From Chitinivorax sp. PXF-14 (GTDB lineage: Bacteria > Pseudomonadota > Gammaproteobacteria > Burkholderiales > SCOH01), in the NCBI RefSeq assembly GCF_040812015.1, contig NZ_JBFNXJ010000003.1, forward strand, positions 124,001 to 188,000: DNA of 64,000 nt, read 5' to 3'. The position numbers and the translations under genes were made by a program. This document shows positions 30,414 through 50,399 of the stretch, piece by piece; positions within the stretch are counted from its first letter, which is position 1; every line of letters starts with the position of its first letter. Below the pieces are notes generated by a model that searched no databases, was not told where the DNA came from, and was given only the letters and a program-made list of their open reading frames with translations.

Positions 30414-30961
30414 TGTTCTCCTCTTTCTGATAGCGCCCGCAAGGCATCCGCGACTTGGGATTTGCTCAGGCGCTCAAGCGGCAATTCCATCAGCGATGTG
30501 ATGCGCGTTCGCATCTCAAGAAACGTCGCGGAAAACGCGGCGCGGATCTCCTCCGGATTTCCTGAGACAGCGGCTGGATCGGCAAACTCCCAATGCACCC
30601 GCCGTGCTTCACCAGGGAACACCGGGCATGGCGGCTCGTCTGCGGCATTCGAGCAAACAGTCAGAACAACATCAATCGGCCTATCCGAATGCGCTTGGGC
30701 AAACTGATCCCAGCTCTTGCTTCGGTAAGCCACTCCATCGTCATTCAAATGTGCGCTGATCTGCTCGATGGCAAACGGATTGACCCGGCCCACTGGGTGA
30801 CTACCGGCGCTGACCACTCGAATCCATGGTTTGCCCAGATGATCGAACAATGCCTCCGCCATGATGCTGCGCGCCGAGTTGCCGGTGCACAGCACCAGAA
30901 GGGTCAACGGCTTCTCCAACTTGGGGCCGACACTTTGGTTAACAGCCTCGCTTAGCAACAT
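30410..30961 (-). CDS. arsC: arsenate reductase, low-molecular-weight phosphatase type
   Basis: 183 residues. The P-loop is CTGNSARS (catalytic Cys and Arg) near the N-terminus; further Cys at LTVCSNAADEPPCPVF match the shuttle pair of thioredoxin-coupled ArsC. It reduces As(V) to As(III), feeding ArsM. ATG 30961 overlaps the arsM stop by ten bases, and its stop overlaps the PiT gene. Thioredoxin for recycling could come from the operon at 38706. Confidence 0.92.
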   Translation of the reverse strand: MLLSEAVNQSVGPKLEKPLTLLVLCTGNSARSIMAEALFDHLGKPWIRVVSAGSHPVGRVNPFAIEQISAHLNDDGVAYRSKSWDQFAQAHSDRPIDVVLTVCSNAADEPPCPVFPGEARRVHWEFADPAAVSGNPEEIRAAFSATFLEMRTRITSLMELPLERLSKSQVADALRALSERGEQ

Positions 30962-31995
30962 GCGCCACCTCCTGACGTGCCATTGGAGCCCTGGTCAAAT
31001 GGCAGGCCGCCGCCGCAGCCCTCAAACAGTCCAAAGTGCTGATCGAAATTTCCGATGAAGTCGAAATGACGGGCGAAACGGGTTTCGTTCAGCATGCGCC
31101 AGGTATTGCCGCAGACAGGGAACACCTTTCCTGTGGCGATATCGTGGTGCTTATCCAGTTGGAAACGATGCGGGTGCTGCGCTACCGTTCCGCGATAGAT
31201 CACGGCTTGCCCGTAGTCTTCGCAGGCGCTTTCCAGGCCGCCAAGCTTGAACAGGCGGTAGGTGGCGGAGAAAAAACGCAGGTTTCCCACGCGCTCGGCC
31301 AAGGTGGGGTCGGTGATGAGCAGCGGTCTATCTTCGACCAAACGCGGATCGGCAAACCCTGCCGCGTTGGCCAACCGCAGGAAATCATTCCAGTACAGCG
31401 CACCGCCGAGGCATTCGCCGTAGAGCACGGGGTCGTCGCGCACGGCGGTCGGCACGCGGCGGTCCGCATAGACGTCCGAAAAATAGAACTCGCCCCCCGG
31501 CTTGAGCAGCCTATGAACGCCGCGCAAAACAGCGGCCTTGTCGGGCGACAGATTCACCACGCAGTTGGAAACGATGACGTCAAAGCTTTCGGGTTCCAGA
31601 TCCAGTTCGGCTAGCCGCTCAATGTAGCCGCTCAGAAAACGCACGTTATCGAAGCCGAATGCCTGTACATGGTGTGCTCTATGGCTTTGCGCGACGGCAA
31701 GTTGCTCGTCGGTCATGTCGACGCCCACCACCATCCCGTCCGGGCCGGCCAACTGCGCCAGCGCGTAAACGTCGCGTCCGGACCCGCAGCCCAGATCCAG
31801 TACCCGGCACCCCGCAAGCTGTTGCGGACAGACGAGCCCGCAACCGTAATAGCGTGACAGCACTTCGGGATGAATGCGCGCGAGCAAGGGCTTGAGCCAC
31901 TCCGGCATGGCACTGGCATCGCAGCAGGCCGTGGTTTTCAGATCGGCACTGCTTTGCAGCTGCTTGCCGTAATAGTCTTGTACGAGTTCATGCAT
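30952..31995 (-). CDS. arsM: arsenite S-adenosylmethionine methyltransferase, arsenosugar type
   Basis: 347 residues. Motif I is VLDLGCGSGRDVYALA; TTACCDAS (Cys24-Cys25), SNCVVNLS and YGECLGG carry the As(III)-binding cysteines. The C-terminal extension ends in GGGACC, an added Cys pair. Start ATG 31995. It methylates As(III) stepwise to dimethylarsenite, the substrate of ArsS. A sigma-type promoter TGTAAGAA-N15-CGAC lies 39 bases upstream (32034-32060), so arsM-arsC-pit can be transcribed separately from the upstream arsS operon. Confidence 0.92.
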   Translation of the reverse strand: MHELVQDYYGKQLQSSADLKTTACCDASAMPEWLKPLLARIHPEVLSRYYGCGLVCPQQLAGCRVLDLGCGSGRDVYALAQLAGPDGMVVGVDMTDEQLAVAQSHRAHHVQAFGFDNVRFLSGYIERLAELDLEPESFDVIVSNCVVNLSPDKAAVLRGVHRLLKPGGEFYFSDVYADRRVPTAVRDDPVLYGECLGGALYWNDFLRLANAAGFADPRLVEDRPLLITDPTLAERVGNLRFFSATYRLFKLGGLESACEDYGQAVIYRGTVAQHPHRFQLDKHHDIATGKVFPVCGNTWRMLNETRFARHFDFIGNFDQHFGLFEGCGGGLPFDQGSNGTSGGGACC

Positions 31996-32033
31996 GATGG
32001 GCGGTTTCCAGAATCGTGTTGGCTTGCTACTGA

Positions 32034-32060
32034 GTCGCACTGCCGGGCCAATTTCTTACA
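32034..32060 (-). promoter_or_regulatory. ECF-type promoter of arsM-arsC-pit
   Basis: -35 TGTAAGAA (complement of 32053-32060) and -10 CGAC (complement of 32034-32037) with a 15-base spacer. Identical elements precede arsS, the thioredoxin gene, bufA, mtnP and the sigma operon. Confidence 0.8.
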
Positions 32061-32502
32061 CTCGCATGCCGGGTACCGCACGATCTCCCTTCAGCCAGCG
32101 CCAACTGTCCAATGCGTCGAAAGCCAGGCTGATCCCATTCACCAACAACACCGCCGTGACATAAATCAGTTCAAGCGGCGGCATGGCATCGGCATCAGAG
32201 AACTGCCTGATTTTTGAGAGCAAGAACCATTGCAACGGTCCCCAAAAGAACAGATGAGGTACAGCCATCAACTTGGTCATCCCGCGAGCCCACAGCATGA
32301 TGGGAACGTTCGTCGCCACGACCAGCAGGGCAGCGGCCGCGATGGCGCGGCCAGACCCGGTATCCAGCATCGCAAACGATGCCGCATTGACCGGCACCAG
32401 AATGCAGCCCACCCAAAACTGAACCCAACCGGGCAAGGATCGGAAGGAAGCCCAACTGACCATGATTCGACTTTGCCTGTAATGTTGCTGGAGGTTATCC
32501 AC
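32056..32502 (-). CDS. membrane protein of unknown function
   Basis: 148 residues with about four helices (VQFWVGCILVPVNAASFAML, AIAAAALLVVATNVPIMLW, LMAVPHLFFWGPLQWFLL, LIYVTAVLLVNGISLAF). The start at 32502 is GTG with a weak purine-rich site; an in-frame ATG at 32463 is an alternative. It lies between the DUF3047 gene and arsM, and its stop touches the arsM promoter. The function is unknown; the context suggests a part in the arsenic programme. Confidence 0.6.
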   Translation of the reverse strand: MDNLQQHYRQSRIMVSWASFRSLPGWVQFWVGCILVPVNAASFAMLDTGSGRAIAAAALLVVATNVPIMLWARGMTKLMAVPHLFFWGPLQWFLLSKIRQFSDADAMPPLELIYVTAVLLVNGISLAFDALDSWRWLKGDRAVPGMRV

Positions 32503-32553
32503 AAGTGTTTCTCTTTTTTTATGGCTGGGGATCGCTTGAGAACTACGTCACGG

Positions 32554-33306
32554 TCAGCGTGACGGCGCTGAGAATGAACAGGGTTGATCCGGGGGCACAA
32601 AGTGAAAATCGGCGAACCCGGCATGTGCAAATTCGCCGGTATTGTCTGTATCGCTTGCGATGGCAAGCTGCGCAGCTTTTATTTGATCCGTACCGAACAG
32701 GCGACGCGCATCGGAGAGAACATCTCGTCGCTCCTCAATCCAGCGGCCAGCCCGCTCGGCGCCGGATTCGAGTACCAGCATGCGGGCTTGGTCGGTGTAG
32801 GCATTGGGGGCTTCGAAACCGATGGGGTGTCGGTTATCCCAAACGTAGTTGATCGCCGCGTCTGGAACCTGCGCCCCAAACAACTGCCGCGCCAGTCCCA
32901 ACTTGAGGCGTTGCCCGAGATTCAGCGCACGGTCGGGCAGCGAAAAGGCGACATAGACACGGGCGGCAAAATCATCGCCCGATTTTTTCGATAGATCCGC
33001 ATGGATCAGGGGCGCATCGATGCGCCAGCGCCAGCACAAAACCGGCGTTGGCTGCAAGTCCATGTTCAGCGGTCGCGCCAGCAGCGCCATGCTGCCCTTG
33101 GCCGTGGCTTCGATGGCCGCGACGCCATCCCACTGCCGTAGCTGATAGCGGGTAGGCGGCGCTTTCTCAGACGGTACGACGATTTGCCAGGGCGCGGGAA
33201 TGGCCGTTGCTCCGGCGTCAATGCGCCCCACATCCAGTGTCTGCGCCTGAATAAGCGCTGGCAGCAGCAAGGCTGAGAAGGCCACACGCTTCACCGCACG
33301 CACCAA
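32554..33306 (-). CDS. DUF3047 periplasmic protein
   Basis: 250 residues, starting at TTG 33306 or GTG 33303 with a signal peptide (FSALLLPALIQA). The DUF3047 core is visible (WQIVVPSEKAPPTRYQLRQWDG ... LCWRWRIDAPL ... FAARVYVAFSLP ... INYVWDNRHPIG ... SGAERAGRWIEERRDVLSDARRLFG). The fold is predicted as a beta-sandwich carbohydrate- or lipid-binding type; the role is not known. It overlaps the TIGR04282 gene by 16 bases. Confidence 0.78.
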   Translation of the reverse strand: MVRAVKRVAFSALLLPALIQAQTLDVGRIDAGATAIPAPWQIVVPSEKAPPTRYQLRQWDGVAAIEATAKGSMALLARPLNMDLQPTPVLCWRWRIDAPLIHADLSKKSGDDFAARVYVAFSLPDRALNLGQRLKLGLARQLFGAQVPDAAINYVWDNRHPIGFEAPNAYTDQARMLVLESGAERAGRWIEERRDVLSDARRLFGTDQIKAAQLAIASDTDNTGEFAHAGFADFHFVPPDQPCSFSAPSR

Positions 33307-33908
33307 TCCTGCGGCAGAGCCGCCAGATCGGCGGGTTCATCGATGTCGCACAGTATGGGCAACTGCGCGACCGACCACTGCAATACGCCGATGCGGCATA
33401 GGGTGTCAAAAGCGACACTGTCAGTGCTCCAGGCGATGCCTCGAAAGACCGAAGGATTGAAAGTCTTTAGGCCGAGCAATACATAGCCACCGTCGGCGCT
33501 CGGAATGATCACCGCGTCCTTCGACACCAGCTGTGTAGCAGCCTCACGCAGACGCTCTGCGGTCAGAAAAGGGCAATCGGTACCGATGAGCAGCACCGCG
33601 CGCCCATCCAGAACGCCTCTGCGTGTGGCGCGCGCGAGCCGCTCACCCAAATCGCCATCGCCCTGTGCCTGCCAGGCGACAGGCCACTCAGGGTCGCGAA
33701 AGGGCCGCCATTGCTGCGCGCCGGGTTCTGGCGTGACGCACAGTTCGATTTCTCCGACATCGGCGGCCAGCGCCTCGGCCACGGTATGGCGCAACATGCG
33801 CTGGGCAAGCCGAGCCGAACCTTGCTCGCCCAGTGCCGGAATGAGGCGTGTCTTGGCGAGCCCCGCCAGCGGCGCCTTGGCGAAGATCACGATCCGGATG
33901 GGACTCAT
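33291..33908 (-). CDS. TIGR04282 family (arsenosugar biosynthesis) glycosyltransferase
   Basis: 205 residues from ATG 33908 (MSPIRIVIFAKAPLAGLAKTRL), the DUF2064/TIGR04282 signature, with LLIGTDCPFLTAERLREA as the nucleotide-binding acidic motif and IIPSADGGYVLLGL. The fold is that of a nucleotide-diphospho-sugar transferase. In arsenosugar gene sets it accompanies TIGR04283 and ArsS. It overlaps the TIGR04283 gene by four bases (ATGA). The exact sugar chemistry is not established to my knowledge. Confidence 0.88.
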   Translation of the reverse strand: MSPIRIVIFAKAPLAGLAKTRLIPALGEQGSARLAQRMLRHTVAEALAADVGEIELCVTPEPGAQQWRPFRDPEWPVAWQAQGDGDLGERLARATRRGVLDGRAVLLIGTDCPFLTAERLREAATQLVSKDAVIIPSADGGYVLLGLKTFNPSVFRGIAWSTDSVAFDTLCRIGVLQWSVAQLPILCDIDEPADLAALPQDWCVR

Positions 33909-34573
33909 CGGTAGGCCCTCGCAATGTCCTCCACCGGCGTACCCAGCCAGTAACGCCAACGCAACCACCACATGAGCGCGATAGTGCGCCACACGCCGCG
34001 CTGCTCCCAGCGACGGCCCGAGGTGACGACTTGCAGCGCCAAGCAGGCGGGCTTCCCTCCGGTTTTGAGTGCTCGGCAGATGTCGATGTCTTCCATCAGC
34101 GGTTGATCCGCAAATCCGCCGACTGCTTCAAACGCCTCACGCGTCACGAAAAGGCCCTGATCGCCGGTGGCGATCCCGGAGAGGCGTGAACGCCAATTCA
34201 TCAGTGCCGAAACCATGCGCAAAGCCATCGGTTTACCGGCGATGCGCACATCGAAGCGTCCCCACTGATGGCTGCGCAGCGCCTGTGCGATGGCGATCAT
34301 GGCCCCTGGCGGCAGCCGCGTGTCGGCATGCAAAAAAAGCAGTACGTCGCCGCTGCTCGCCGCCGCGCCCGCATTCATTTGGCGCGCCCGACCCGCTGCG
34401 CTCGTCAGAACACGAAACCCGGCTGCGTGTGCAATGGCTTCTGATCCATCCTGACTGCCGCCATCAACAAAAATGATTTCCACGCCTGATCGGGCGAGTG
34501 GCACCACGTGCTCGCACAAATCGGGCAGGCCTGTCGACTCATTGAGCATGGGGACTATGATGCTTAACTTCAT
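33905..34573 (-). CDS. TIGR04283 family (arsenosugar biosynthesis) glycosyltransferase
   Basis: 222-residue GT2-type enzyme: LSIIVPMLNESTGLPDL at the N-terminus, VDGGSQDGS nucleotide site, LLFLHADTRLP as the DXD-like motif, and GDQGLFVTREAFEAVGGF acceptor motif. It is coupled to TIGR04282 downstream and DUF547 upstream (two bases gap). It probably adds or builds the sugar side chain of the arsenosugar, which is inference from family naming and context. Confidence 0.88.
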   Translation of the reverse strand: MKLSIIVPMLNESTGLPDLCEHVVPLARSGVEIIFVDGGSQDGSEAIAHAAGFRVLTSAAGRARQMNAGAAASSGDVLLFLHADTRLPPGAMIAIAQALRSHQWGRFDVRIAGKPMALRMVSALMNWRSRLSGIATGDQGLFVTREAFEAVGGFADQPLMEDIDICRALKTGGKPACLALQVVTSGRRWEQRGVWRTIALMWWLRWRYWLGTPVEDIARAYR

Positions 34574-34575: not shown

Positions 34576-35406
34576 TTACCTCCGGCCGTCATTGAGACGC
34601 CAGTCGTAATCGCCAAAGCGGATCGCCAGCCTTCCACCGCGCAGATCGTTCGCTTGCGCGGCGTTCAGTCCGGCCACACCGGCATAACGCGCCAGTAAAT
34701 CCGGCAACGCCTTATCGCCACGGAAGCCTTGCTCGAAATCCTCGCGGTACCACTTGAAGATGGGGGAAACCTCCAGCGCATCGTCCGCGATCCGGTTTCG
34801 CGTCCGGTCGCCCAAGAAGCGCTTGGTCTGGTCTTCGAGTTGCTCGTCAAGTTTTTCCGCGCCATAGGCTTCGGGCCGTAACGCCGGGCAGCCGATGCTG
34901 GCGCAATTGACCGCAAAATGGATACGCGGATCACGATAGCGCCCCGATCCGCGAATCAATCCGTGTTCAATGTCATCCAGCGAACGGGTTTGCCCGAGCA
35001 AAGACACAAACGGCTTCTTCCAGGGTGACTGGATGAAGGAACCCAGATCCTTGATGGACTTCAAATCCGGGTATCGGGTCAGAATAAACTGCACCGTGAA
35101 GGCGTTGTAGGCATTGATCAGATACGCCAACTGTGCCTCCCGCGACCAACCATCGAAGGTCTGGCGCGATACGGCTGACAGGGCCGTCAAATAGTTCTGC
35201 AACTTATCCTTGTCGGTCGCCATACCCTGATAGTTCACGGTGCTCGCATGGCCGTCGCTAATCCAGCGCACATGTCGCTGAAGCATCTGGCTCCATGCGC
35301 CGTGATCGAAGCCCTGTGGCGTTTGGGCATAGGCCGTCGCAGCCCCCAAGGAGAACGTGATGGCGACGGCCAGTCTGCGCAGCCAAACTTTCATCGTTGA
35401 ATACAT
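34576..35406 (-). CDS. DUF547 periplasmic protein
   Basis: 276 residues with signal peptide (LAVAITFSLGAATAYA). The DUF547 core is present (REAQLAYLINAYNAFTVQFILTRYP, IHFAVNCASIGCPALRPEAY), with the conserved Cys-containing motif CASIGCP that resembles a papain/transglutaminase-like centre. It stands in the arsenosugar operon between the TVP38 fusion and the glycosyltransferases. The function is unknown. Confidence 0.85.
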   Translation of the reverse strand: MYSTMKVWLRRLAVAITFSLGAATAYAQTPQGFDHGAWSQMLQRHVRWISDGHASTVNYQGMATDKDKLQNYLTALSAVSRQTFDGWSREAQLAYLINAYNAFTVQFILTRYPDLKSIKDLGSFIQSPWKKPFVSLLGQTRSLDDIEHGLIRGSGRYRDPRIHFAVNCASIGCPALRPEAYGAEKLDEQLEDQTKRFLGDRTRNRIADDALEVSPIFKWYREDFEQGFRGDKALPDLLARYAGVAGLNAAQANDLRGGRLAIRFGDYDWRLNDGRR

Positions 35407-35410: not shown

Positions 35411-37567
35411 TTATCCCCTCATCCAGCGGTGATAGGCTTCCACCCATCGCAATACCCGCTGCGGTGCGTGGGCGCGCTTCCATTCCCCCGCCGCATATTT
35501 ATTGGCCTCGGCCCAAGTGGGATACGGGTGGATCGTGGCCAGGATTTTGTTAAGCCCCAGCCCGTGCTTCATGGCCAGCACGAACTCGGAGAGCAATTCC
35601 CCGGCATGCGCGCCGACAATCGTGACGCCCAGAATGCGATCCTTGCCCGGCTCGGTCAGCACCTTGATCCAGCCTTCGGCATGACCTTCGGCAATCGCGC
35701 GATCCAGGTCGTCCAGGCCATAGCGGGTTACCTCAAACGCGATGCCTTTCTCCCTAGCCTCGCGCTCATTGAGGCCTACCCGCGCAATTTCGGGATCGAC
35801 AAACGTCACCCAGGGGATCACGGAGTAGTCCACTTTGAAGCGCTTGAAGCGACCAAACAGCGCGTTGACCGCCGCATACCACGCCTGGTGCGCGGCAGTG
35901 TGGGTAAATTGATAGGGCCCGGCCACATCGCCCGCGGCGAAGATGTTTGGGTAGAGCGTTTCAAGGTATTCATTGGTCTGAATCGTGCGTTGGGTGGGGA
36001 TGCCCAGCGCCTCCAAGCCGAACCCTTCCAGCCGGGCCTGCCGACCCACGGCGACCACAATCTCGTCAAACGCGATGCGCTGCTCCCCGGCCGTTCCGGC
36101 AACGACGAGGTATTTGGAACCAGCTTCCTGTTCGATACGCAGCGCACGATGTTCGACGAGCACATGGACACCATCGCCCTCAAGGGCGCGACGGGCGAAG
36201 CTCGACACCTCGTCGTCCTCTCGCAGCATCAGCCGAGGCAGCATTTCGACCTGCGTCACTGTGGAGCCCAGTCGCGCAAAGCTCTGCGCCAACTCGCATC
36301 CGATTGGACCGCCGCCGAGCACGATAAGCCGCTCTGGCGCATGATCCCGTTCCTTGAGGCGATCCCAGAGGGTGTCTGAGGTGAGGTAGTTGATCGATTC
36401 CAGCCCCGGTAGCGGCGGCACGAAAGGGCGTGCGCCGGTCGCCAGAACGATGCTACGGGCGCTTAACTGCTCCACCTTGCCGCTTTGATCGGTGATCTCG
36501 ACCGTCCATGGATTGATCAAACGGGCATGACCTTGGCGCACCTCCACGCCGAGTTGGGTATAACGCTCCACACTGTCATGCGGTGCCACGGCGGCAATCA
36601 CGCCATGAACCCGCGCCATGACACGCTTGAATGAAAACGCAGGCATTGTGGATTCGAGCCCCAAATCGGCTGCATGACGCATCTGATGCGCGGCTTTCGC
36701 GCTGCGGATGAGCGCTTTGCTCGGAACGCATCCGTAGTTGAGGCAATCGCCCCCCATCTTGTGCGACTCAATCAACGTGACCTTGGCCTCGACCGCAGCG
36801 GCGATGTAAGACGTCACCAGCCCGGCCGCGCCAGCGCCAATCACGATCAGATTGCGATCAAATCGGCTCGGCCGTTGCCAGCGCACATAGACACGGCGCT
36901 GCTTGATCCATCCGATAGTCGCCTTGGCCAGCCAAGGGAATGCCGCCAGCAGCGCGAATGAGGCCAGCAATGACACGGAGAGAATGTCGGAAGGCGCTTC
37001 GATCAGCGCCAGCCGTGTTCCCGCGTTCACGTAAACCAGCGTCCCAGCCAGCATGCCCAACTGGCTGACCCAGTAAAACGTGCGGGCGCGCATGCGGGTC
37101 AATCCCAACAAGAGGTTGATCATGAAGAAGGGAATGACCGGCACCAGGCGCAGCGTGAACAAGTAGAAAGCCCCATCCCGGTTCACGCCTTCATTGATCG
37201 ACGCCAGCCTTGCTGAAAACCGTGCCTCCACGAGGTCGCGCAGCAGGTAACGCGCCACGAGGAAGGCCAGCAGCGCGCCCACGCTGGAGGCAAACGAAGC
37301 CAGCAGGGTGCCCCACGCCAAGCCGAACAACGCACCGGCAGCCAGCGTCATGACAGCGGCTCCCGGCAAGGAAAGCGCCGCTACCAGGACGTACAGCCCA
37401 AAGAACCCCGCCATCATCCAGAGCGAATGCAATTCACGCCACGCCTGAAGCTGAGTCAGCCCAGACTTCAGGGCGGCAAACGACAGCCACTGCGCCCCGT
37501 TGAAGTAAAAAAACAGCCCCAGCAGTGCCGCGATCAGGAGCAGTAGCCAGAATTTCGCTGACCTCAT
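35411..37567 (-). CDS. TVP38/DedA-like membrane domain fused to a flavin disulfide reductase
   Basis: 718 residues from ATG 37567 with AGGGGAG upstream. The first about 230 residues are a TVP38/SNARE-associated membrane domain (LPGAAVMTLAAGALFGLAWGTLLASFASSVGALLAFLVARY; FTLRLVPVIPFFMINLLLGLTRM). Residues about 240-718 form a pyridine-nucleotide-disulfide oxidoreductase with VIGAGAAGLVTSYIA, the redox pair CLNYGC and a C-terminal HPYPTWAEA dimer motif similar to mercuric reductase/dihydrolipoamide dehydrogenase. It is coupled to arsS by ATGA. A membrane-bound reductase for arsenic or thiols is plausible. Confidence 0.88.
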   Translation of the reverse strand: MRSAKFWLLLLIAALLGLFFYFNGAQWLSFAALKSGLTQLQAWRELHSLWMMAGFFGLYVLVAALSLPGAAVMTLAAGALFGLAWGTLLASFASSVGALLAFLVARYLLRDLVEARFSARLASINEGVNRDGAFYLFTLRLVPVIPFFMINLLLGLTRMRARTFYWVSQLGMLAGTLVYVNAGTRLALIEAPSDILSVSLLASFALLAAFPWLAKATIGWIKQRRVYVRWQRPSRFDRNLIVIGAGAAGLVTSYIAAAVEAKVTLIESHKMGGDCLNYGCVPSKALIRSAKAAHQMRHAADLGLESTMPAFSFKRVMARVHGVIAAVAPHDSVERYTQLGVEVRQGHARLINPWTVEITDQSGKVEQLSARSIVLATGARPFVPPLPGLESINYLTSDTLWDRLKERDHAPERLIVLGGGPIGCELAQSFARLGSTVTQVEMLPRLMLREDDEVSSFARRALEGDGVHVLVEHRALRIEQEAGSKYLVVAGTAGEQRIAFDEIVVAVGRQARLEGFGLEALGIPTQRTIQTNEYLETLYPNIFAAGDVAGPYQFTHTAAHQAWYAAVNALFGRFKRFKVDYSVIPWVTFVDPEIARVGLNEREAREKGIAFEVTRYGLDDLDRAIAEGHAEGWIKVLTEPGKDRILGVTIVGAHAGELLSEFVLAMKHGLGLNKILATIHPYPTWAEANKYAAGEWKRAHAPQRVLRWVEAYHRWMRG

Positions 37568-38583: not shown

Positions 38584-38610
38584 GTCGTCAGCGCTGGTCA
38601 ATTTCTTACA
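38584..38610 (-). promoter_or_regulatory. ECF-type promoter of the arsS operon
   Basis: -35 TGTAAGAA (complement of 38603-38610), 15-base spacer, -10 CGAC (complement of 38584-38587). It is back to back with the divergent promoter at 38635. Confidence 0.8.
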
Positions 38611-42346: not shown

Positions 42347-42373
42347 TGTAAGAACCCGGTGGTCGATAACGAC
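42347..42373 (+). promoter_or_regulatory. ECF-type promoter of the bufferin operon
   Basis: -35 TGTAAGAA (42347-42354), 15-base spacer, -10 CGAC (42370-42373). bufA begins about 97 bases further on. Confidence 0.8.
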
Positions 42374-42469: not shown

Positions 42470-42772
42470 ATGAGCAAAAGCACCACCGTTACTGCACTCA
42501 CCCTCGCGCTTGGCGCAGCACTCATTACTGCCGCGCTGCCCGCTTCTGCCGCTGACGACATGATGGCCGGCAAGGAGAAGTGCTTCGGCGTCGCCCTCAA
42601 GGGCAAAAATGACTGCAAGGCCGGAGCGGGTACCACCTGCGCAGGCACGGCGAAGAAGGACTATCAGGGCAATTCGTTCAAGCTGGTTCCCGCCGGCACT
42701 TGCGAGAAAACCGCTTCACCGACCTCGTCCACGGGCATGGGTCAGCTCAAGGAATTCAAGGAAAAGGCCTAA
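42470..42772 (+). CDS. bufA: bufferin precursor BufA (DUF2282)
   Basis: 100 residues. Signal peptide [27 protein letters not shown], then a core with four conserved cysteines at positions 38, 49, 57 and 78 ([31 protein letters not shown]), the DUF2282 pattern. Bufferins are copper-binding ribosomal peptides whose cysteines are modified by the DUF692 enzyme (family knowledge). RBS AGGAG. The bufABC-DoxX order here is canonical. Confidence 0.92.
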
Positions 42773-42791
42773 GGCGCTCGGGAGCCGTGCG

Positions 42792-44446: not shown

Positions 44447-44457
44447 GGAGACCGACC

Positions 44458-44973
44458 ATGACTATGCTTTGTTCATCTGTTCCGGCACAGGCTGTTCGAT
44501 CGGCCATCACCATGCTGTCTTGCATTCCACACTCGCTGATTGCCTTTGTCGGACGGTTTTCCATCGCGGCGGTGTTCTGGAAATCGGGCCAGACCAAGAT
44601 CGAAGGCTTGGCCATCGACCTCGTCAGCGGCCAAGTCCAACTCGGCTGGCCGCACCTGTCGGACAGCGCGCTGGAGTTGTTCCGCACCGAATATCGCCTG
44701 CCGCTGCTACCGCCGGAACTCGCGGTGCCGATGGCCGCGTTTGCCGAGCACCTGTTTCCGCTGCTGCTGCTCATCGGCCTGGCCACGCGATTCTCGGCGC
44801 TCGGCTTGCTGGGCATGACGGCGGTGATTGAGATCTTCGTCTACCCGGATGCCTATCCGATCCATGGCACTTGGGCTGCCGTCCTGTTGTATCTGATTGC
44901 CAAGGGCCCGGGGGCACTGTCACTGGATCACCTGATCGCGCGGCGCTGCGCGCAGCAGCCCAAGGTGAGGTGA
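44458..44973 (+). CDS. DoxX-family membrane protein of the bufferin operon
   Basis: 171 residues from ATG 44458 (GAGGAGA upstream), with four membrane helices; GRFSIAAVFWKSGQTKIEG and ELAVPMAAFAEHLFPLLLLIGLATRFSALGLLGMTAVIEIF are typical of DoxX. It is the usual fourth gene of bufferin operons; its role is unclear, perhaps electron transfer. The next gene starts eight bases later. Confidence 0.88.
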   Translation: MTMLCSSVPAQAVRSAITMLSCIPHSLIAFVGRFSIAAVFWKSGQTKIEGLAIDLVSGQVQLGWPHLSDSALELFRTEYRLPLLPPELAVPMAAFAEHLFPLLLLIGLATRFSALGLLGMTAVIEIFVYPDAYPIHGTWAAVLLYLIAKGPGALSLDHLIARRCAQQPKVR

Positions 44974-44980: not shown

Positions 44981-45757
44981 ATGAATGCGCTGCTCGGCCG
45001 GATCGGGGCGGCTCTCGCCGCCTACTTGTCCCGTCCGGTTCATGTTCACAGTAGCGCACCGGCAGTGGCCAACGAACGCCTACTGGCCTGCCTTCGACCC
45101 GGCGATGTGTTGCTTGTTGAAGGCAACAGTCGCATCAGCACGGCGATCAAGTACCTGACCCAATCAACCTGGTCGCACGCCGCCTTGTTTGTTGGATTCG
45201 AGGCCCTGCGCATGGCGGGCAAAGACGGTTCGCATTGCTTTGTCGAGGCCGATACCATCGAGGGAGTGCGCAGTGTCGGTATCGAGGAATTTTCCGGACT
45301 GCACACCCGAATTTGTCGCCCGGTGGGATTGCAGGAGCACGACAGACGGCAACTGATTTTGCATGCCATCCAACGTTTGGGGCACCAGTACGATTTGCGC
45401 AATGTCTTCGATTTGGCGCGCTACCTGTTGCCCACCCCGCCAGTTCCGCTACGCTGGCGCCGCAGGCTCATTCACCTCGGCAGCGGCGACCCAACGCGCG
45501 CCATCTGCTCGACCCTGATCGCGCAGTCCTTCCAATCCATTCGCTACCCGATTCTGCCCATCGTCGAGCAACGCTCCGCAGATCGACCGGATTGCCCAGC
45601 CTGTGTCGAGGAAATTTTGCGAGTCCGCCACCACAGCCTGTTCGCGCCGCGAGACTTTGATGTCTCTCCGTATTTCGCGGTCGTGAAACCCACGCTCGAA
45701 AACGGGTTCGACTACACGCGCTTGCACTGGCAGCACGCTAGGTCAGATCAAAATTAA
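44981..45757 (+). CDS. YiiX-like permuted NlpC/P60 cysteine hydrolase
   Basis: 258 residues. The permuted papain-like order is visible: His66 in STWSHAALFVG, Glu89 in FVEADTIEGV, Cys176 in RAICSTLIAQ. The N-terminus GDVLLVEGNSRISTAIKYLTQS is the family hallmark. There is no clear signal peptide; a short hydrophobic stretch at residues 5-16 could be an anchor. Eight bases after the DoxX gene it looks like part of the bufferin operon, which is not the usual set. Its end overlaps the anti-sigma gene tail to tail by four bases. Confidence 0.8.
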   Translation: MNALLGRIGAALAAYLSRPVHVHSSAPAVANERLLACLRPGDVLLVEGNSRISTAIKYLTQSTWSHAALFVGFEALRMAGKDGSHCFVEADTIEGVRSVGIEEFSGLHTRICRPVGLQEHDRRQLILHAIQRLGHQYDLRNVFDLARYLLPTPPVPLRWRRRLIHLGSGDPTRAICSTLIAQSFQSIRYPILPIVEQRSADRPDCPACVEEILRVRHHSLFAPRDFDVSPYFAVVKPTLENGFDYTRLHWQHARSDQN

Positions 45758-45978
45758 GGCGCTCCCTTATCGTCTCGATGAGGCGGCGGTGGCACCGACT
45801 CATCAGCACCTTCGGTATAGGCACGCGTGATCTGCCGCAGCGTGTGCATCTGCTCGCCAAAGTTGCGACATCCGCTGCACATCATGACGTGCATTTTGAG
45901 CGAGAGCTTGTCACCCAACTTGAGTGGGTGTTCCTGTGCCTCCGACATCAGGCGGGTGGCCTCACGGCAATTCAGCAT
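45754..45978 (-). CDS. zinc-binding anti-sigma factor (ZAS/zf-HC2)
   Basis: 74 residues. The ZAS motif is HVMMCSGC (His30, Cys34, Cys37), and the N-terminal MLNCREATRLMSEAQE is the standard sigma-binding start. There is no membrane segment, so it is a soluble, probably redox- or metal-responsive anti-sigma factor. Its ATG overlaps the stop of the sigma gene by seven bases. Confidence 0.88.
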   Translation of the reverse strand: MLNCREATRLMSEAQEHPLKLGDKLSLKMHVMMCSGCRNFGEQMHTLRQITRAYTEGADESVPPPPHRDDKGAP

Positions 45979-46613
45979 GATTCACCCTCCAGAAACCAGC
46001 GATTTTCCAAACACTCTCGCAAGCGCAATCGCGCGCGGTGCAACATGACATTTAAATTACTAACACTCAGGTTGAGTGCCGTGCAAATTTCATCCGAGTC
46101 CAGTTCTATGAATTCACGCATCATGAAAGCGCGACCTTGCTGTCCCGGCAAATGATCGAGGCAGGTTTCAAATATCCGCCAGAATTCTGAATTTTTGATC
46201 GCGATCTCGGGGTTTGCCCATTCCTGCGGACGCTCATCCATCTGCCAGAAGCCTTTACGATCAAATAGCTCCTGAAAATCTTCATCTTCCTCGTCAGTGT
46301 GAAGAAGTTGACTAACCTCAACCAAGCGATGGCGCTGGCGCAATGTGTCTGCAATCTTGTTCTTGAGAATGGCAAAGACCCAAGTCTTGAATGCCGACCG
46401 CCCGGCGAATTTCTGCGAGTTTTTCATTGCACCAATCAGCGCCTCTTGAACCGCATCTTCCGCCAAATGAGCGTCGGATAATTGCTGCGAGGCGAATTTC
46501 ACCATTTGGCGGCGCAGGTCTTCCAGAAACACCGCATCATTCATCCAGCCGCGAGGGTTCGGATGACGTGACTGACCATCATCGGCGAGTATTATTATGT
46601 TTGTGTCAGCCAT
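45972..46613 (-). CDS. ECF-type RNA polymerase sigma factor
   Basis: 213 residues from ATG 46613, preceded by GGAGAGGG. Sigma region 2: MVKFASQQLSDAHLAEDAVQEALIGAMKNSQKFAGRSAFKTWVFAILKNKIADTLRQR; region 4: FMMREFIELDSDEICTALNLSVSNLNVMLHRARLRLRECL. It probably reads the six TGTAAGAA-N15-CGAC promoters of this cargo, including the promoter at 49423-49449 that heads its own operon. The insertion between regions 2 and 4 (TDEEDEDFQELFDRKGFW) is acidic. Confidence 0.9.
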   Translation of the reverse strand: MADTNIIILADDGQSRHPNPRGWMNDAVFLEDLRRQMVKFASQQLSDAHLAEDAVQEALIGAMKNSQKFAGRSAFKTWVFAILKNKIADTLRQRHRLVEVSQLLHTDEEDEDFQELFDRKGFWQMDERPQEWANPEIAIKNSEFWRIFETCLDHLPGQQGRAFMMREFIELDSDEICTALNLSVSNLNVMLHRARLRLRECLENRWFLEGESC

Positions 46614-46830
46614 TCCCTCTCCTGCTGAGTTCATTACGAACCGCTGAATAACTTGAAACCAAGTACGGTACCACGTAATTGAGCCCAAGTCGCCACCAGT
46701 CCAATCCCTGTCCTCCGATTAACGCAGGCCCCTGATTAATGACATTCAGCACCGTACCAACGAACAAGGCAATCCTGACCGCACCCGCGATAATGCGCGA
46801 CGAAAACCACAGTTTGATCCCGAGTTTCAT
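46606..46830 (-). CDS. NrtS-like small membrane protein
   Basis: 74 residues with two membrane helices: AGAVRIALFVGTVLNVINQGPAL and WWRLGLNYVVPYLVSSYSAVR. This matches the NrtS family pattern (VGTxLNxINQG and YLVPYxVxxY), named for nitrate/nitrite transport in a cyanobacterium. It overlaps the HD-GYP gene by four bases and the sigma gene by eight. In this setting its role is open. Confidence 0.7.
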   Translation of the reverse strand: MKLGIKLWFSSRIIAGAVRIALFVGTVLNVINQGPALIGGQGLDWWRLGLNYVVPYLVSSYSAVRNELSRRGNG

Positions 46831-47780
46831 CGTTTACCTGATACTGGCAGTGCGCATGCCTTGAGCAACTCTTGCGCGGGCAACGCCGAAACGGCGTCCT
46901 GCACCGTCCGGGCGATCAGTGCGGCATCGATGTCGGGCGTCAGATCGGCAGCTTGCCCCTTGCAGCCGGTGGGGACGGCGCACAACAGGCCGTGCTCGTC
47001 ACGGAGTTCAAATTCTCCCGTGCAGTTGCGGCAATAGACGTGATCGCCTGCATGGTGTTCACGTCTGATCACCAGAGTCGGACCGCACATGGGGCACTCG
47101 CGCAATGGAATTCCGTCATCGCTGTGACTGATCACATGATCCAGCACGCCGCGCCCACCCATCTCCAGAACAACCTCGGCAATCACAGAATCAAACTGCG
47201 CACCTTGTGCTTCTCCAATGATGGACAAGGCCCGGTCTCGCGGCATGCCCGGCCGGTATGGGCGGTGGCTGGTCATCGCGTCGAACGCATCACAAACCCC
47301 GACGATGCGCGCCATTGGAGGAACCGCGTCACCAGCCAAACCTCTTGGGTAACCGCGACCGTCCGGACGCTCGTGATGCAGCAGTACCGCATCCTGCACC
47401 AGCTCGACCAACGGATGCCCGGCCAATAGCTTGAGTCCGACGTCTGGATGGGTCTTGATGACGGCGTACTCCTCGTCAGTCAAGGCTCCGGTCTTACGCA
47501 AGATGGCGTCTGGAACGGCGATCTTGCCCAAGTCGTGCAGGAATCCCCCAAGGCTGATGCGGGTAGCATCGGCTTCGCCGTAGCCCAACTGCTCCGCAAC
47601 CAGCCTGGCGTAGCGCGACACGCGCCACAGGTGTCCACCGGTATAGGGGTCACGCGCCTCGACCGCCCACGCCATGGTCATCAAGCTGGCCAGCAGATGC
47701 GAGGCATGCGTGGTCGCATCTTGCGGATCGAGACAATCCTCATTGGATAACCATCGACTCAGCGAAGTTAGCAAGGGCAT
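46827..47780 (-). CDS. HD-GYP domain protein with C-terminal zinc ribbon
   Basis: 317 residues. HD-GYP core: GGHLWRVSRYARLVAEQLG, GGFLHDLGKIAVPD (HD), KTHPDVGLKLL, LLHHERPDGRGYPRGL (GYP), VCDAFDAMTSHRPYR. All ligand residues are present, so c-di-GMP hydrolysis is likely. From about residue 230 a rubredoxin-like zinc ribbon follows (CPMCG ... CRNC). There is no receiver or membrane domain. Within the sigma-factor operon it may couple c-di-GMP turnover to metal stress. Confidence 0.88.
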   Translation of the reverse strand: MPLLTSLSRWLSNEDCLDPQDATTHASHLLASLMTMAWAVEARDPYTGGHLWRVSRYARLVAEQLGYGEADATRISLGGFLHDLGKIAVPDAILRKTGALTDEEYAVIKTHPDVGLKLLAGHPLVELVQDAVLLHHERPDGRGYPRGLAGDAVPPMARIVGVCDAFDAMTSHRPYRPGMPRDRALSIIGEAQGAQFDSVIAEVVLEMGGRGVLDHVISHSDDGIPLRECPMCGPTLVIRREHHAGDHVYCRNCTGEFELRDEHGLLCAVPTGCKGQAADLTPDIDAALIARTVQDAVSALPAQELLKACALPVSGKR

Positions 47781-47818: not shown

Positions 47819-48925
47819 CTACGGCGGCAAGCGCAATTGGCGGGCGATAAAACGACGATCAATGCTGTCTTTCCAGCGCCACACCCATCGCCCCTCGGCG
47901 CTGAAGCCGCCCCAGGACGCAATGGCGCGACGTTCGCCGCAGGCCAGCAGATACAAGGATGTGGCTCTTGGATGATAGGCATGCAGGCGTTCACCCAACA
48001 ATGCGGCAGTCAGGTTTTGCGCGAGGATGGGGCCTGCATGAACGGCGTGAACGCCTGATCGAGCCATTGCAACATCGGTGCGCGCACAGACATCGCCCGA
48101 CGCGAACACGTCACTGTGCGACAAGGTTCGGTGGAAGGCGTCAACGGCGATATGACCGTACTCGTCCAGCGTCAGTTTGGACAGTTTCAACCAGCAAGGC
48201 GCTCGCCCCCCCGTTGCGAGCAGCACGAGATCCGGACGTAGCTCGCGGCCATCGGCCAACATGATGCCATTGGGAACGCCAACCGCCCGCTGCTCATGTA
48301 CTGCGATCCCGGCCTGGTGCAGGCAGCGCAGGGCACGCTGACGCACTGCCCGTCCATGCCCGGGCAACAAGCCAGAGTCCCCGGCAACCAAGTCCATGTC
48401 AATTTGATTGACGCCGCGCAGCGCTTCGCGCGCTGCCATGACCAACTCAAAGCCCGCCGCGCCACCGCCAATGACGGCGACATGAACACGCTCGCGACTG
48501 CGGGCGGAAGTGATCCATTTTGGCCACGCCACCACAAAGTCATCCAATGGCTTGACCGCGAGCAAGTTCTGGCCAACATCTTCAAACCAGGAGCCATCGG
48601 TTTCAGAGCCGGTGTCGAGCGACAAAAGGTCATATTCCAAGTGACGCTTGTCTGGCAGCGCAACGCAGCGACGATCTGCGTCCATGCCGACGACGGACGA
48701 CTCGATCAGTTCAACACCAGCGGCGGCGCACAACGGGCGCAGATCGATGCGGATCTTCTCCAGCGGGTACACACCCGCCATCCACCCCGGCAGCATGCCG
48801 GAGTAGTGCTGAAAGGAAGACGGTGTCACCAGGGTGATGGACAATCCTTTTGGGCGACACTTCGCCAGATGGTGCAACACCGCGAGATGGGCATGCCCGC
48901 CTCCAGCGAGGATCAGTCTTTTCAT
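47819..48925 (-). CDS. FAD-dependent pyridine nucleotide oxidoreductase
   Basis: 368 residues. FAD site at the N-terminus (LILAGGGHAHLAVLHHLAKCRP), second Rossmann motif VAVIGGGAAGFELVMAARE, and VFASGDVCAR near the C-terminus. The GGGHAH start and QHYSGMLPGWMAGVY resemble the flavoprotein part fused to SelD in some bacteria and NDH-2-like enzymes. There is no CxxxxC redox pair, so it is a dehydrogenase/quinone-type enzyme rather than a disulfide reductase. It overlaps the upstream gene by four bases. Confidence 0.85.
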   Translation of the reverse strand: MKRLILAGGGHAHLAVLHHLAKCRPKGLSITLVTPSSFQHYSGMLPGWMAGVYPLEKIRIDLRPLCAAAGVELIESSVVGMDADRRCVALPDKRHLEYDLLSLDTGSETDGSWFEDVGQNLLAVKPLDDFVVAWPKWITSARSRERVHVAVIGGGAAGFELVMAAREALRGVNQIDMDLVAGDSGLLPGHGRAVRQRALRCLHQAGIAVHEQRAVGVPNGIMLADGRELRPDLVLLATGGRAPCWLKLSKLTLDEYGHIAVDAFHRTLSHSDVFASGDVCARTDVAMARSGVHAVHAGPILAQNLTAALLGERLHAYHPRATSLYLLACGERRAIASWGGFSAEGRWVWRWKDSIDRRFIARQLRLPP

Positions 48926-49389
48926 CTGCGATCCAGACCAAAATGACGACGAATGGCATGCATCGCCTGCTGTCGGGTGTCTGGCCCCGCCAAATCGTCC
49001 TTGCTCAGATACAGAAGTCCGGTGGGACTGCCTAGCTCGGATCGGTTGAGCCCGCCGTCGTCCAGTCCAAGAACCTTGGGACTTAGTCCTGCCTGCTTTC
49101 CTATGCGCTCCAGGCTTTCCTTGGCTTTGGCGTAAGGCAATAACGCGGCAAACAGCAGCGGTAAGGTGGGGCGCGCTTGTCGCAGATGTTTGATGACTTC
49201 TTCCGCAGAAGCATCCATGGAAGAACTCACCGCAAGCGAAATCACAGCGCCAACGCAGCCACGCGACAGGTCAGCCAGCTCCGTTACCCTTTCGGCCTTG
49301 GAAACCTTGAAGCCAGCCTCTTCGAGAAAAGGCTTCATCTCGGAAACAATGAAGGTATGCGGCCGCGCCAGCAAAACGGTAGGGCTCAT
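48922..49389 (-). CDS. receiver-like protein of unknown function, first gene of the sigma operon
   Basis: 155 residues from ATG 49389. Predicted alternating beta-alpha order (TVLLARPHTFIVSEMKPFLEEAGFKV, CVGAVISLAVSS, LPLLFAALLPY) resembles a receiver fold, but the phospho-Asp position reads SLAVS, so phosphorylation is unlikely. It heads the operon x-FAD-HD-GYP-NrtS-sigma-antisigma, whose ECF-type promoter is 34 bases upstream. The function is unknown. Confidence 0.7.
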   Translation of the reverse strand: MSPTVLLARPHTFIVSEMKPFLEEAGFKVSKAERVTELADLSRGCVGAVISLAVSSSMDASAEEVIKHLRQARPTLPLLFAALLPYAKAKESLERIGKQAGLSPKVLGLDDGGLNRSELGSPTGLLYLSKDDLAGPDTRQQAMHAIRRHFGLDRR

Positions 49390-49422
49390 TCGAAGTTCTC
49401 CAGTCAGATCGTTTGAGGATTG

Positions 49423-49449
49423 GTCGCTCGGACATGCTTCGTTCTTACA
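49423..49449 (-). promoter_or_regulatory. ECF-type promoter of the sigma-factor operon
   Basis: -35 TGTAAGAA (complement of 49442-49449), 15-base spacer, -10 CGAC (complement of 49423-49426). It lets the sigma factor drive its own operon. Confidence 0.8.
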
Positions 49450-49473
49450 GCGCACGAACTCCAATTTGAACGG

Positions 49474-49500
49474 TGTAAGAAATGAATCCCTTCGCACGAC
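49474..49500 (+). promoter_or_regulatory. ECF-type promoter of mtnP
   Basis: -35 TGTAAGAA (49474-49481), 15-base spacer, -10 CGAC (49497-49500). It is divergent to the sigma-operon promoter, with 24 bases between the -35 elements, and 36 bases before the mtnP ATG. Confidence 0.8.
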
Positions 49501-49535
49501 CAAGACGCATCTTTCGTGATCTGGATAAGGACGAT

Positions 49536-50399
49536 ATGAGCGACGCACTAATTGGCATCATCGGTGGAAGCGGGCTGTACCAACTGGATGGCCTTGAGCA
49601 TGTTGGCGAGGAGCGTATCCAGACACCCTACGGCTCCACCTCGGACGTCGTAGTGACTGGGGACTTGAACGGTATTCGAGTCGCGTTTCTGGCGCGCCAC
49701 GGGCGTGGCCACCGCCTGCTGCCGTCGGAGGTTCCCTATCGCGCCAACATCTATGCGCTCAAGCAACTGGGGGCTCGCTACCTCCTGTCCTTCTCGGCAG
49801 TGGGGTCACTGCGAGAGGACATGGCGCCGCTGAACTTCGTCCTGCCGGATCAGTACATCGACTTGACCAAACGCCGGGACAGCACTTTCTTCGGGGAAGG
49901 GGTGGTCGCGCACGTTTCCATGGCGCAGCCGGTCTGCTCAGTGACCTGCGAAGTTTTGTCGCGAGCCGTTCGTACCGTTCTTCCAGTTGATGTGCGCCTT
50001 CATCAAGGTGGCACTTACGTCTGCATCGAGGGCCCGCAGTTTTCAAGCCAAGCCGAGTCGAACTGGTATCGCAGTATGGGCGCCAGCATCATCGGAATGA
50101 CCAACATGCCGGAAGCAAAATTGGCGAGAGAAGCGCAGATGGCCTATGCCAGTTTGGCCATGGTGACCGACTACGATTGCTGGCACCCTCGGGAGGCCCA
50201 CGTTACAGCCGACATGGCTATCGCCAATCTGATGACGAATGCAGAACGCGCCAAGCTGGTGGCGGCCGAAGCGATCCGGGTCTTAGGTGCCGAGAAACCT
50301 GATTCTCCCGCGCATAACGCCCTACAGAGCGCTGTGGTTACTCCCGCCGAAGCCATTCCGGAAACGCTGAAACGGCAGCTTGCCGTTCTACTTCGCTAG
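49536..50399 (+). CDS. mtnP: S-methyl-5'-thioadenosine phosphorylase family enzyme
   Basis: 287 residues. The longer frame from 49482 overlaps the promoter, so I start at ATG 49536 (AAGGA upstream). Phosphorylase hallmarks: IIGGSGLYQLDGLEHV, FLARHGRGHRLLPSEVPYRANIYALKQLG, TYVCIEGPQFSSQAES, IIGMTNMPEAKLAREAQMAYASLAMVTDYDCW. It splits 5'-substituted adenosines with phosphate to adenine. Placement under the same ECF-type promoter as arsS suggests that dimethylarsinoyl-adenosine is its substrate here. Confidence 0.9.
   Translation: MSDALIGIIGGSGLYQLDGLEHVGEERIQTPYGSTSDVVVTGDLNGIRVAFLARHGRGHRLLPSEVPYRANIYALKQLGARYLLSFSAVGSLREDMAPLNFVLPDQYIDLTKRRDSTFFGEGVVAHVSMAQPVCSVTCEVLSRAVRTVLPVDVRLHQGGTYVCIEGPQFSSQAESNWYRSMGASIIGMTNMPEAKLAREAQMAYASLAMVTDYDCWHPREAHVTADMAIANLMTNAERAKLVAAEAIRVLGAEKPDSPAHNALQSAVVTPAEAIPETLKRQLAVLLR

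What the first reader, a model, noticed from the sequence alone, without database searches (positions are those of the whole stretch)
30952..49536. Six identical ECF-type promoters tie arsenosugar, bufferin, thiol and sigma-factor genes into one regulon
The pattern TGTAAGAA-N15-CGAC occurs exactly before arsM (32034-32060, minus), arsS (38584-38610, minus), the thioredoxin-ccdA operon (38635-38661), bufA (42347-42373), mtnP (49474-49500) and the operon that ends with the sigma and anti-sigma genes (49423-49449, minus). All have exactly 15 bases between elements and 36 to 97 bases to the start codon. The two outward pairs are back to back with 24 bases between the -35 elements. I read this as an autoregulated ECF sigma regulon carried wholly by an ICE, joining arsenosugar synthesis, copper bufferins and periplasmic thiol transfer. 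I know of no description of such a joined regulon, but I cannot search.
Basis: partly seen in the sequence, partly recalled or inferred. Interest (0 to 1): 0.95.

Follow-up and report, generated by a model that had tools for sequence, protein, structure and literature searches.

The report
One switch for copper and arsenosugars
A mobile element in this bacterium carries six copies of one predicted start signal in front of genes predicted to make arsenic-containing sugars, a copper-binding peptide, thiol-transfer proteins and a stress switch protein that would read those signals, and the same signals stand before the same kinds of genes in distantly related bacteria, which makes a shared control of copper and arsenic defences likely.

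Summary
In detail: the six TGTAAGAA-N15-CGAC sites are the only exact ones in the 4.42 Mb genome (about 0.2 expected). Allowing the spacer and base variation seen in relatives gives eight exact sites. The two extra ones stand before two bufferin-type operons outside the ICE, so the likely regulon is not wholly on the ICE, although the six sites and the sigma gene lie inside its ends (18-bp repeat at window 51662-51679). In relatives a match with at most one mismatch lies upstream of arsS in 8 of 11 loci from genomes with a close sigma, 11 of 32 with a weaker one and 4 of 39 with none; permuted patterns average under 0.1. On a Burkholderia glumae plasmid a diverged sigma (45%) goes with a shifted motif, TGTAA-N17-CGWC, at eight places including bufA, arsS and trx-ccdA-sigma. 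The sigma and anti-sigma resemble the Neisseria SigE-MseR pair, whose known operon is of bufferin type. New here is arsenosugar synthesis, with an extra mtnP, in such a regulon; my paper searches listed no such description. Transcription itself is untested.

The parts
32034..32060 (-). promoter-like site before arsM
   Evidence: exact match
38584..38610 (-). promoter-like site before arsS operon
   Evidence: exact match
38635..38661 (+). promoter-like site before trx-ccdA
   Evidence: exact match
42347..42373 (+). promoter-like site before bufA
   Evidence: exact match
49423..49449 (-). promoter-like site before the sigma operon
   Evidence: exact match
49474..49500 (+). promoter-like site before mtnP
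   Evidence: exact match
30952..31995 (-). arsM, arsenite methyltransferase-like; start taken from relatives
37564..38532 (-). arsS, arsenosugar radical SAM protein
   Evidence: TIGR04167, 466.8 bits, cut-off 300, (query ran five codons further upstream)
35411..37600 (-). TVP38-like / pyridine nucleotide-disulfide oxidoreductase fusion, arsS operon (start uncertain)
   Evidence: oxidoreductase half resembles NCBIfam models, none over its cut-off among the 25 shown; TVP38 half named from the B. glumae homologue's annotation
34576..35406 (-). DUF547-like protein, arsS operon
   Evidence: no NCBIfam match; name from the B. glumae homologue (31% identity)
33905..34573 (-). TIGR04283 arsenosugar glycosyltransferase
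   Evidence: 275.7 bits, cut-off 182
33291..33893 (-). TIGR04282 arsenosugar glycosyltransferase (start uncertain)
   Evidence: 197 bits, cut-off 134
32554..33306 (-). DUF3047 protein
   Evidence: Pfam
32056..32502 (-). 148-aa protein, no family found, end of arsS operon
38706..39092 (+). thioredoxin with signal-like N terminus
   Evidence: Pfam; signal by eye
39092..39820 (+). CcdA-like DsbD transmembrane protein
   Evidence: Pfam DsbD_TM
42470..42772 (+). bufA, Buf1-type precursor (DUF2282)
   Evidence: Pfam
42786..43691 (+). bufB, MNIO enzyme (start uncertain)
   Evidence: Pfam PF05114, 356 bits
43694..44446 (+). bufC, DUF2063
   Evidence: Pfam
44443..44973 (+). DoxX protein of buf operon
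   Evidence: Pfam
44981..45757 (+). C92 papain-like amidase
   Evidence: Pfam
45754..45978 (-). anti-sigma factor, C4/H30xxxC34xxC37 zinc site
   Evidence: NF052368 over cut-off; alignment
45972..46634 (-). ECF sigma factor (start 46634 or 46613)
   Evidence: Pfam regions 2 and 4; PRK12544 and TIGR02943 over cut-off
46606..46830 (-). 74-aa NrtS-like membrane protein
   Evidence: NF038050 over cut-off
46827..47780 (-). HD-domain phosphodiesterase-like protein
   Evidence: Pfam HD_5
47819..48925 (-). FAD oxidoreductase of the SelD-fusion type
   Evidence: TIGR03169 over cut-off
48922..49389 (-). 155-aa first protein of the sigma operon, no family found
49536..50399 (+). mtnP, MTA phosphorylase
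   Evidence: TIGR01694, 313.7 bits, cut-off 274.85
51662..51679 (.). 18-bp att-like repeat, right end of the ICE
   Evidence: only other copy in C3:66001-198000 is at C3:80853-80870, beside the integrase frame

Best explanation
An ICE-borne ECF sigma factor, predicted to be held inactive by the small zinc-site anti-sigma factor encoded next to it, likely transcribes its own operon and the arsM, arsS, thioredoxin-ccdA, bufferin and mtnP units from one promoter-like sequence that stands before all six. Shown by sequence: the sites, their strand and fixed geometry, their recurrence before the same genes in distant genomes, and the conserved Cys4/His30-x3-Cys34-x2-Cys37 anti-sigma site. Inferred: copper(I), arsenite or oxidants attack the zinc-cysteine site and free the sigma factor, which then raises its own level. 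Inferred: the outputs bind copper (bufferin), keep periplasmic thiols reduced (thioredoxin-CcdA), and turn arsenite into arsenosugars (ArsM methylates, ArsS adds the 5'-deoxyadenosyl group, MtnP removes adenine, the two glycosyltransferases finish). Also inferred: the same sigma factor reads the two bufferin-type promoters outside the ICE.
For: Only exact matches in the genome. The relaxed pattern adds two sites, both before MNIO operons. Conserved gene set and motif in other families and in named genomes of other classes: in 7 of the 8 loci with arsS or arsM among the 34 mapped of 80 returned, one of the two genes has the motif (at most one mismatch) upstream. Upstream of arsS: 8 of 11, 11 of 32, 4 of 39 as the sigma gets weaker or absent. 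Inner-operon genes bufB, bufC, GT4283 and DUF547: 0 of 147 upstream stretches over the four sets. A shifted motif set with a diverged sigma: eight sites, 200 Markov sequences mean 0.26, maximum 2. Anti-sigma zinc ligands at C4, H30, C34, C37 in 25 of 25 rows, the numbering of Neisseria MseR. Neisseria SigE consensus of like geometry (PMC2893595, passages).
Against: No expression data. arsS is common without this sigma: 38 of 80 arsS genomes have no homologue at E 1e-25, and 35 of 39 such loci lack the motif. The exact motif as such is not more frequent than its reversed control over 200 genomes of the order (18 of 200 have it); its place, not its number, is the evidence. The ars label is not clustered on the sigma tree (14 changes, shuffled mean 15.6, 96 of 500 as low). 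The own genome has a second ECF sigma (36%) with its own anti-sigma (45%), which could read some sites. In set 2 only 2 of 4 arsS, 1 of 4 bufA and 0 of 1 trx have the motif. Meningococcal SigE did not respond to H2O2, diamide or singlet oxygen (PMC2893595), so the proposed signal is uncertain.
Confidence: 0.78

Rival explanations
1. The promoters are real, but the second sigma factor of the genome (C10:106861-107403, 36% identical) drives some or all of them, and the ICE sigma factor is partly redundant or reads only its own operon.
For: A second ECF sigma with its own zinc-site anti-sigma relative is present. The two bufferin sites outside the ICE have a 14-base spacer and the six ICE sites 15, as if two factors had separate tastes.
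Against: G115, with one sigma match at E 1e-20, has both spacers before its ars, buf and sigma units. Around the second sigma no site with fewer than two mismatches and an intact GTAA was found. The motif goes with the close sigma type across genomes.
Confidence: 0.13
2. The sites are operators of another regulator, for example the AraC-type protein at 40557-41375, not sigma promoters.
For: An AraC-type gene lies in the cargo.
Against: The sites are directional, bipartite, with 14-15 bases between parts and a fixed side relative to the gene. Their -35 core and spacing match the published Neisseria SigE consensus. Of 50 loci (of 133 mapped) with a site before a core gene, 6 hold any AraC relative at E 1e-6 and 2 one of at least 45%. 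The -10 half is mostly CGTC where the sigma has diverged.
Confidence: 0.04
3. The six sites are recent copies of one sequence spread inside the ICE, without regulatory meaning.
For: They share 12 exact positions within 17.5 kb.
Against: Spacer and flanks differ among the six, and homologous sites occur before the same genes in other families, classes and another mobile element.
Confidence: 0.02

Closest known systems
SigE-MseR of Neisseria meningitidis (PMC2893595 and PMC3240639, passages read)
   Same: ECF sigma followed by a small cytoplasmic zinc anti-sigma with Cys4 and His30-x3-Cys34-x2-Cys37, the same numbers as here; autoregulated operon; -35 GTMAGBWTT, 12-13 bases, -10 CGTCTAAH, the same 16-17 bases between GTAAG and the -10; regulon with msrA/msrB. 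The gonococcal neighbourhood holds DUF692 (MNIO), DUF2063 and DoxX genes (PMC2954202, passages). A gonococcal record gives 40% sigma identity and C4/H30/C34/C37 in its anti-sigma.
   Different: -10 is CGAC here instead of CGTC; the set here also holds arsM, arsS, arsenosugar glycosyltransferases and mtnP; it is ICE-borne. No arsenic genes are reported for SigE in the passages read.
RpoE2-HrsE of Haemophilus influenzae (PMC7907618, passages read)
   Same: ECF group 13 sigma with a 67-residue zinc anti-sigma, shown to repress it; controls msrAB and linked to a DoxX cluster
   Different: Induced by HOCl and H2O2; no arsenosugar genes in the passages read; only weak control of its own promoter
gigPABT-rpoQ-rsqA of Cupriavidus metallidurans (PMC10304878, passages read)
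   Same: bufferin-type operon beside an ECF sigma gene; copper and gold induce it
   Different: Predicted membrane-bound anti-sigma; RpoQ control of gig not shown; no arsenosugar genes in the passages read
GIG operon on Legionella ICE-beta-ox (PMC5413113, passages read)
   Same: bufferin-type operon carried by an ICE, copper and gold responsive
   Different: no arsenosugar link in the passages read

Membership tests
SigE-MseR / RpoE2-HrsE type ECF-zinc anti-sigma system | ECF sigma with regions 2 and 4 | tested here: met
   Pfam Sigma70_r2 and Sigma70_r4_2; TIGR02943 and PRK12544 over cut-off
SigE-MseR / RpoE2-HrsE type ECF-zinc anti-sigma system | adjacent small anti-sigma with Cys4 and His30-x3-Cys34-x2-Cys37 | tested here: met
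   NF052368 78.3 bits, cut-off 50; 25 of 25 rows; gonococcal C4/H30/C34/C37
SigE-MseR / RpoE2-HrsE type ECF-zinc anti-sigma system | promoter GTMAGBWTT-N12-13-CGTCTAAH | tested here: inconclusive
   GTAAG core and 16-17 base distance to the -10 agree; the -10 third base is A in the window and T in Neisseria and in 6 of 8 sites of B. glumae
SigE-MseR / RpoE2-HrsE type ECF-zinc anti-sigma system | sigma activates its own operon and anti-sigma blocks it | not testable with these tools
   needs reporters; only a promoter-like site before the sigma operon is shown
Bufferin (Buf1) gene cluster | DUF2282 precursor, MNIO enzyme, DUF2063 partner, DoxX | tested here: met
   Pfam matches over cut-off
Bufferin (Buf1) gene cluster | copper binding by the modified peptide | not testable with these tools
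   literature only
Arsenosugar biosynthesis cluster | ArsS radical SAM and TIGR04282/TIGR04283 glycosyltransferases | tested here: met
   all three over NCBIfam cut-offs
Arsenosugar biosynthesis cluster | ArsM of the arsenosugar model NF038099 | tested here: not met
   85.4 bits against cut-off 400 (exception-type model); best match is the general arsenite methyltransferase model, 166.8 against 263
Arsenosugar biosynthesis cluster | makes an arsenosugar | not testable with these tools
   no chemistry data
ICE with tyrosine integrase | integrase and att direct repeats enclosing the cargo | tested here: met
   PF00589 match C3:81740-82279 in the frame 80921-83029; 18-bp repeat at C3:80853 and window 51662
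ICE with tyrosine integrase | conjugation genes | not tested
   no search for T4SS or relaxase was run

The most novel reading that the evidence does not exclude
Bacteria of several classes run arsenosugar synthesis as one arm of a SigE-type thiol and soft-metal stress regulon: one anti-sigma factor with a Cys3-His zinc site senses copper(I), arsenite or oxidants; the freed sigma factor turns on bufferin, periplasmic thiol transfer and arsenosugar enzymes together; the extra MtnP in the regulon is the missing enzyme that takes adenine off the ArsS product; sigma factor and promoter set have changed together as the module moved between ICE, plasmid and chromosome.
Probability: 0.45. Interest if true: 0.87.

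Novelty: new variant of a known kind. Interest (0 to 1): 0.74.

Why it matters
Why bacteria make arsenosugars, and what switches the pathway on, is little known (from general knowledge). A conserved promoter set gives a direct answer to test: arsenosugar synthesis would be part of a copper and thiol stress response rather than an arsenite-repressor (ArsR) response. It also names a candidate (the second MtnP) for a pathway step between ArsS and the glycosyltransferases, and gives a promoter signature with which to find further members. The matched difference of sigma and promoters between the ICE and plasmid versions offers a natural test of how ECF specificity evolves.

Tried and rejected
Chance was rejected for the window. 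An artefact of near-identical genomes was rejected: the motif recurs with sigma proteins of 45-71% identity. Part of the relaxed-motif hits in other genomes lie inside the sigma coding sequence (marked IN:sigma: L131, L224, L231); they raise the count for asf in set 3 (5 of 29) and should not be counted as promoters. A single origin of the arsenosugar link on the sigma tree found no support. A first strict pattern (GTAAG required) found nothing on the B. glumae plasmid; looking at upstream stretches showed TGTAA, any three bases, N14, CGTC, then counted, so that pattern was chosen after seeing some of the sites. No motif was seen in the printed arsS and bufA upstream stretches of Cupriavidus sp. 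KK10. A tRNA-Ser call at C3:117162 gave no repeat and was dropped. argJ, looked for as the former neighbour of secA (recalled), lies near a contig edge (C1:2760) and told nothing. PDB search of the anti-sigma gave nothing.
Full report
OBSERVATION. With at most one mismatch the genome has 10 matches, fewer than the 22 of the reversed pattern, so only exact sites carry information by themselves. The base-composition expectation for exact sites is 0.20 per genome. Each lies 33-96 bases before a start codon (arsS start corrected to 38532, 51 bases). Over 200 genomes of the order the exact pattern occurs in 18, and in total less often than its reversed control: place, not number, is what tells.

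WHAT LIES BEHIND THEM. arsS (TIGR04167) and the two arsenosugar glycosyltransferases exceed their NCBIfam cut-offs; ArsM is a general arsenite methyltransferase and does not reach the special arsenosugar model. The bufA operon is a complete Buf1 cluster: DUF2282, MNIO, DUF2063, DoxX. The sigma operon runs from 49389 to 45754 with gaps of at most 38 bases: a 155-residue protein without family, a SelD-fusion-type FAD oxidoreductase, an HD-domain protein, an NrtS-like protein, the ECF sigma and the anti-sigma. mtnP exceeds TIGR01694; a second copy at C8:113148 lies just below the cut-off (269.8 against 274.85 bits), so the ICE copy may be dedicated to another substrate (inference).

REST OF THE OWN GENOME. 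Relatives showed A or G at position 7 and spacers of 14 or 15. With that pattern the own genome has eight exact sites against two for the reversed pattern (expectation 1.1). The two outside the ICE are before a DUF2282-MNIO-DUF2063-DoxX operon (C4; the DUF2063 member read by eye) and before a Cys-Lys-Gly repeat precursor with MNIO and DUF2063 (C16). Both read CGACCAA. All eight sites therefore precede genes of the supposed regulon.

ICE. The contig holds two ICE cores in a row. Their parA ends are 84% alike. A large integrase frame starts at C3:80921. An 18-bp sequence occurs in C3:66001-198000 only at C3:80853-80870, just before the integrase, and at window 51662-51679, 124 bases from the gene I read as secA (the name secA and the likeness of the repeat to a tRNA-Gly 3' end are recalled, not from a search). 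The cargo with the six sites lies between them. Conjugation genes were not searched for.

RELATIVES, OWN ORDER. The sigma protein was sought in 200 genomes of the order (90 with a match at E 1e-20) and arsS in 399 (119 with a match at E 1e-60). In the 20 stretches and 80 the maps show genomes of other families with the same neighbours. G115 has mtnP and the FAD oxidoreductase back to back, C92 and arsS back to back, arsM, bufABCD and trx-ccdA, each with the motif or a one-mismatch form. G020 has one run from bufA to sigma and anti-sigma, then motif, arsS, arsM. G048, where no arsS was seen near the sigma, has two exact back-to-back sites between an mtnP relative (42%) and a partial match to the FAD oxidoreductase, on another contig than its sigma.

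COUNTS. Upstream 150 bases of arsS in 82 loci (79 genomes: the 80 best of 119, less the window's own), at most one mismatch: 8 of 11 where the genome has a sigma of at least 190 bits, 11 of 32 with a weaker one, 4 of 39 with none at E 1e-25. Permuted patterns average 0.03-0.06 loci, with single permutations reaching 2, 5 and 3; the opposite strand gives 4, 1 and 0, the 4 fitting back-to-back pairs. Of the three misses in the first group, two are the two copies in G216, where arsS follows sigma and anti-sigma in the same direction behind a motif-bearing bufA, and one is G087, where arsM has the motif. A second count used 250 bases. Sigma of at least 58% on the locus, own-database loci then named genomes: arsS 5 of 7 and 2 of 4, arsM 3 of 5 and 4 of 4, bufA 4 of 4 and 1 of 4, mtnP 3 of 3 and 1 of 2, trx 1 of 1 and 0 of 1, FAD oxidoreductase 3 of 5 and 2 of 3. 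Sigma of 45-57%: arsS 2 of 5, arsM 0 of 1, bufA 7 of 15, mtnP 1 of 2. arsS loci without sigma on the locus: arsS 17 of 70, arsM 1 of 7, FAD oxidoreductase 0 of 23. Genes expected inside operons (GT4283, bufB, bufC, DUF547): 0 of 147 over the four sets. The anti-sigma gene, as a fifth inner gene, gave 0 of 21 in the first two sets but 5 of 29 in the third; sites inside the sigma coding sequence explain at least some of these. Permuted patterns (60, for arsS, arsM and bufA) average at most 0.08, with single ones reaching 4.

The eighth (L225) has a one-mismatch site before the sigma operon only. A sigma tree of 58 rows does not gather the ars-linked rows (14 changes, shuffled mean 15.6, 96 of 500 as low): the link was made or lost many times, or flanks are too short.

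A SHIFTED SET. Among plasmids, 53 records carry arsS and 47 of these are Burkholderia. B. glumae BGR1 plasmid bglu_2p holds bufferin genes, arsS, mtnP, both glycosyltransferases, C92, and trx-ccdA with sigma and anti-sigma. Its sigma is 45% identical to the window's. There TGTAA-N17-CG[AT]C occurs eight times in 31.8 kb, all eight followed by NAA, against a mean of 0.26 (maximum 2), and 0 with NAA, in 200 Markov sequences. All eight are 27-166 bases before a gene, among them bufA, trx-ccdA-sigma, arsS, a radical SAM gene, C92 and a second sigma gene. Six have CGTC instead of CGAC. The pattern was defined after some of the sites had been seen.

REGULATOR TYPE. The anti-sigma belongs to the NCBIfam anti-sigma-E family and keeps Cys4, His30, Cys34 and Cys37 in 25 of 25 rows, the residues and numbers of N. 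meningitidis MseR, where the three cysteines but not the histidine were needed for full activity (PMC2893595, passages). The published SigE consensus has the same GTAAG core and spacing. This places the system with SigE-MseR and RpoE2-HrsE (PMC7907618, passages), whose regulons include msrAB and a DoxX cluster. So the bufferin and thiol arms are near the known core, and the arsenosugar arm is the addition.

LITERATURE. Ten searches of the open library, several with capped lists, listed no paper that by title or abstract joins arsenosugar genes to a sigma factor or to bufferins. Nine papers were read as passages only. The MNIO survey PMC12452194 notes sigma factors in Buf1 clusters, and a word search of it for arsen- gave nothing. 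Most subscription journals are not in the library.

MECHANISM. Shown: sites, geometry, recurrence, families, anti-sigma residues. Inferred: that the ICE sigma reads the sites, that the signal is a thiophilic metal, arsenite or oxidant acting on the zinc site, and that MtnP serves the arsenosugar pathway. The second sigma at C10 (36%) is the main rival driver; an AraC-type operator is unlikely, since 6 of the 50 loci with a site before a core gene hold any AraC relative.

Noticed in passing
contig C3:66001-80900 and window 1-11850: Two ICE cores in tandem; parA ends 84% alike and many short identical stretches.
   Followed up: partly
window 40806-40832 (-): A seventh near match, TGTAAGAA-N15-CGTC, inside the AraC-type gene; probably chance, but it has the Neisseria-type -10.
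   Followed up: no
G092, G152, G087, G148, G175 and other arsS loci: Several arsS relatives are listed with one TGA inside the match, which may be a selenocysteine codon.
   Followed up: no
sigma genes in G026, G073, G010, G046 and others: A motif-like string lies inside the sigma coding sequence near its end; a trap for genome-wide motif counts.
   Followed up: partly
L127 and L128 (G216): One genome holds the bufferin-sigma-arsS-arsM block twice, with a further bufA-bufB copy in L128.
   Followed up: no
window 48922-49389: The first gene of the sigma operon encodes a 155-residue protein without Pfam or NCBIfam match; relatives lie upstream of sigma in L122, L216 and L225.
   Followed up: no
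window 22889-28853: By eye, a CusCBA-type efflux system in the same ICE; no family search was run, and no match with up to two mismatches lies there.
   Followed up: no
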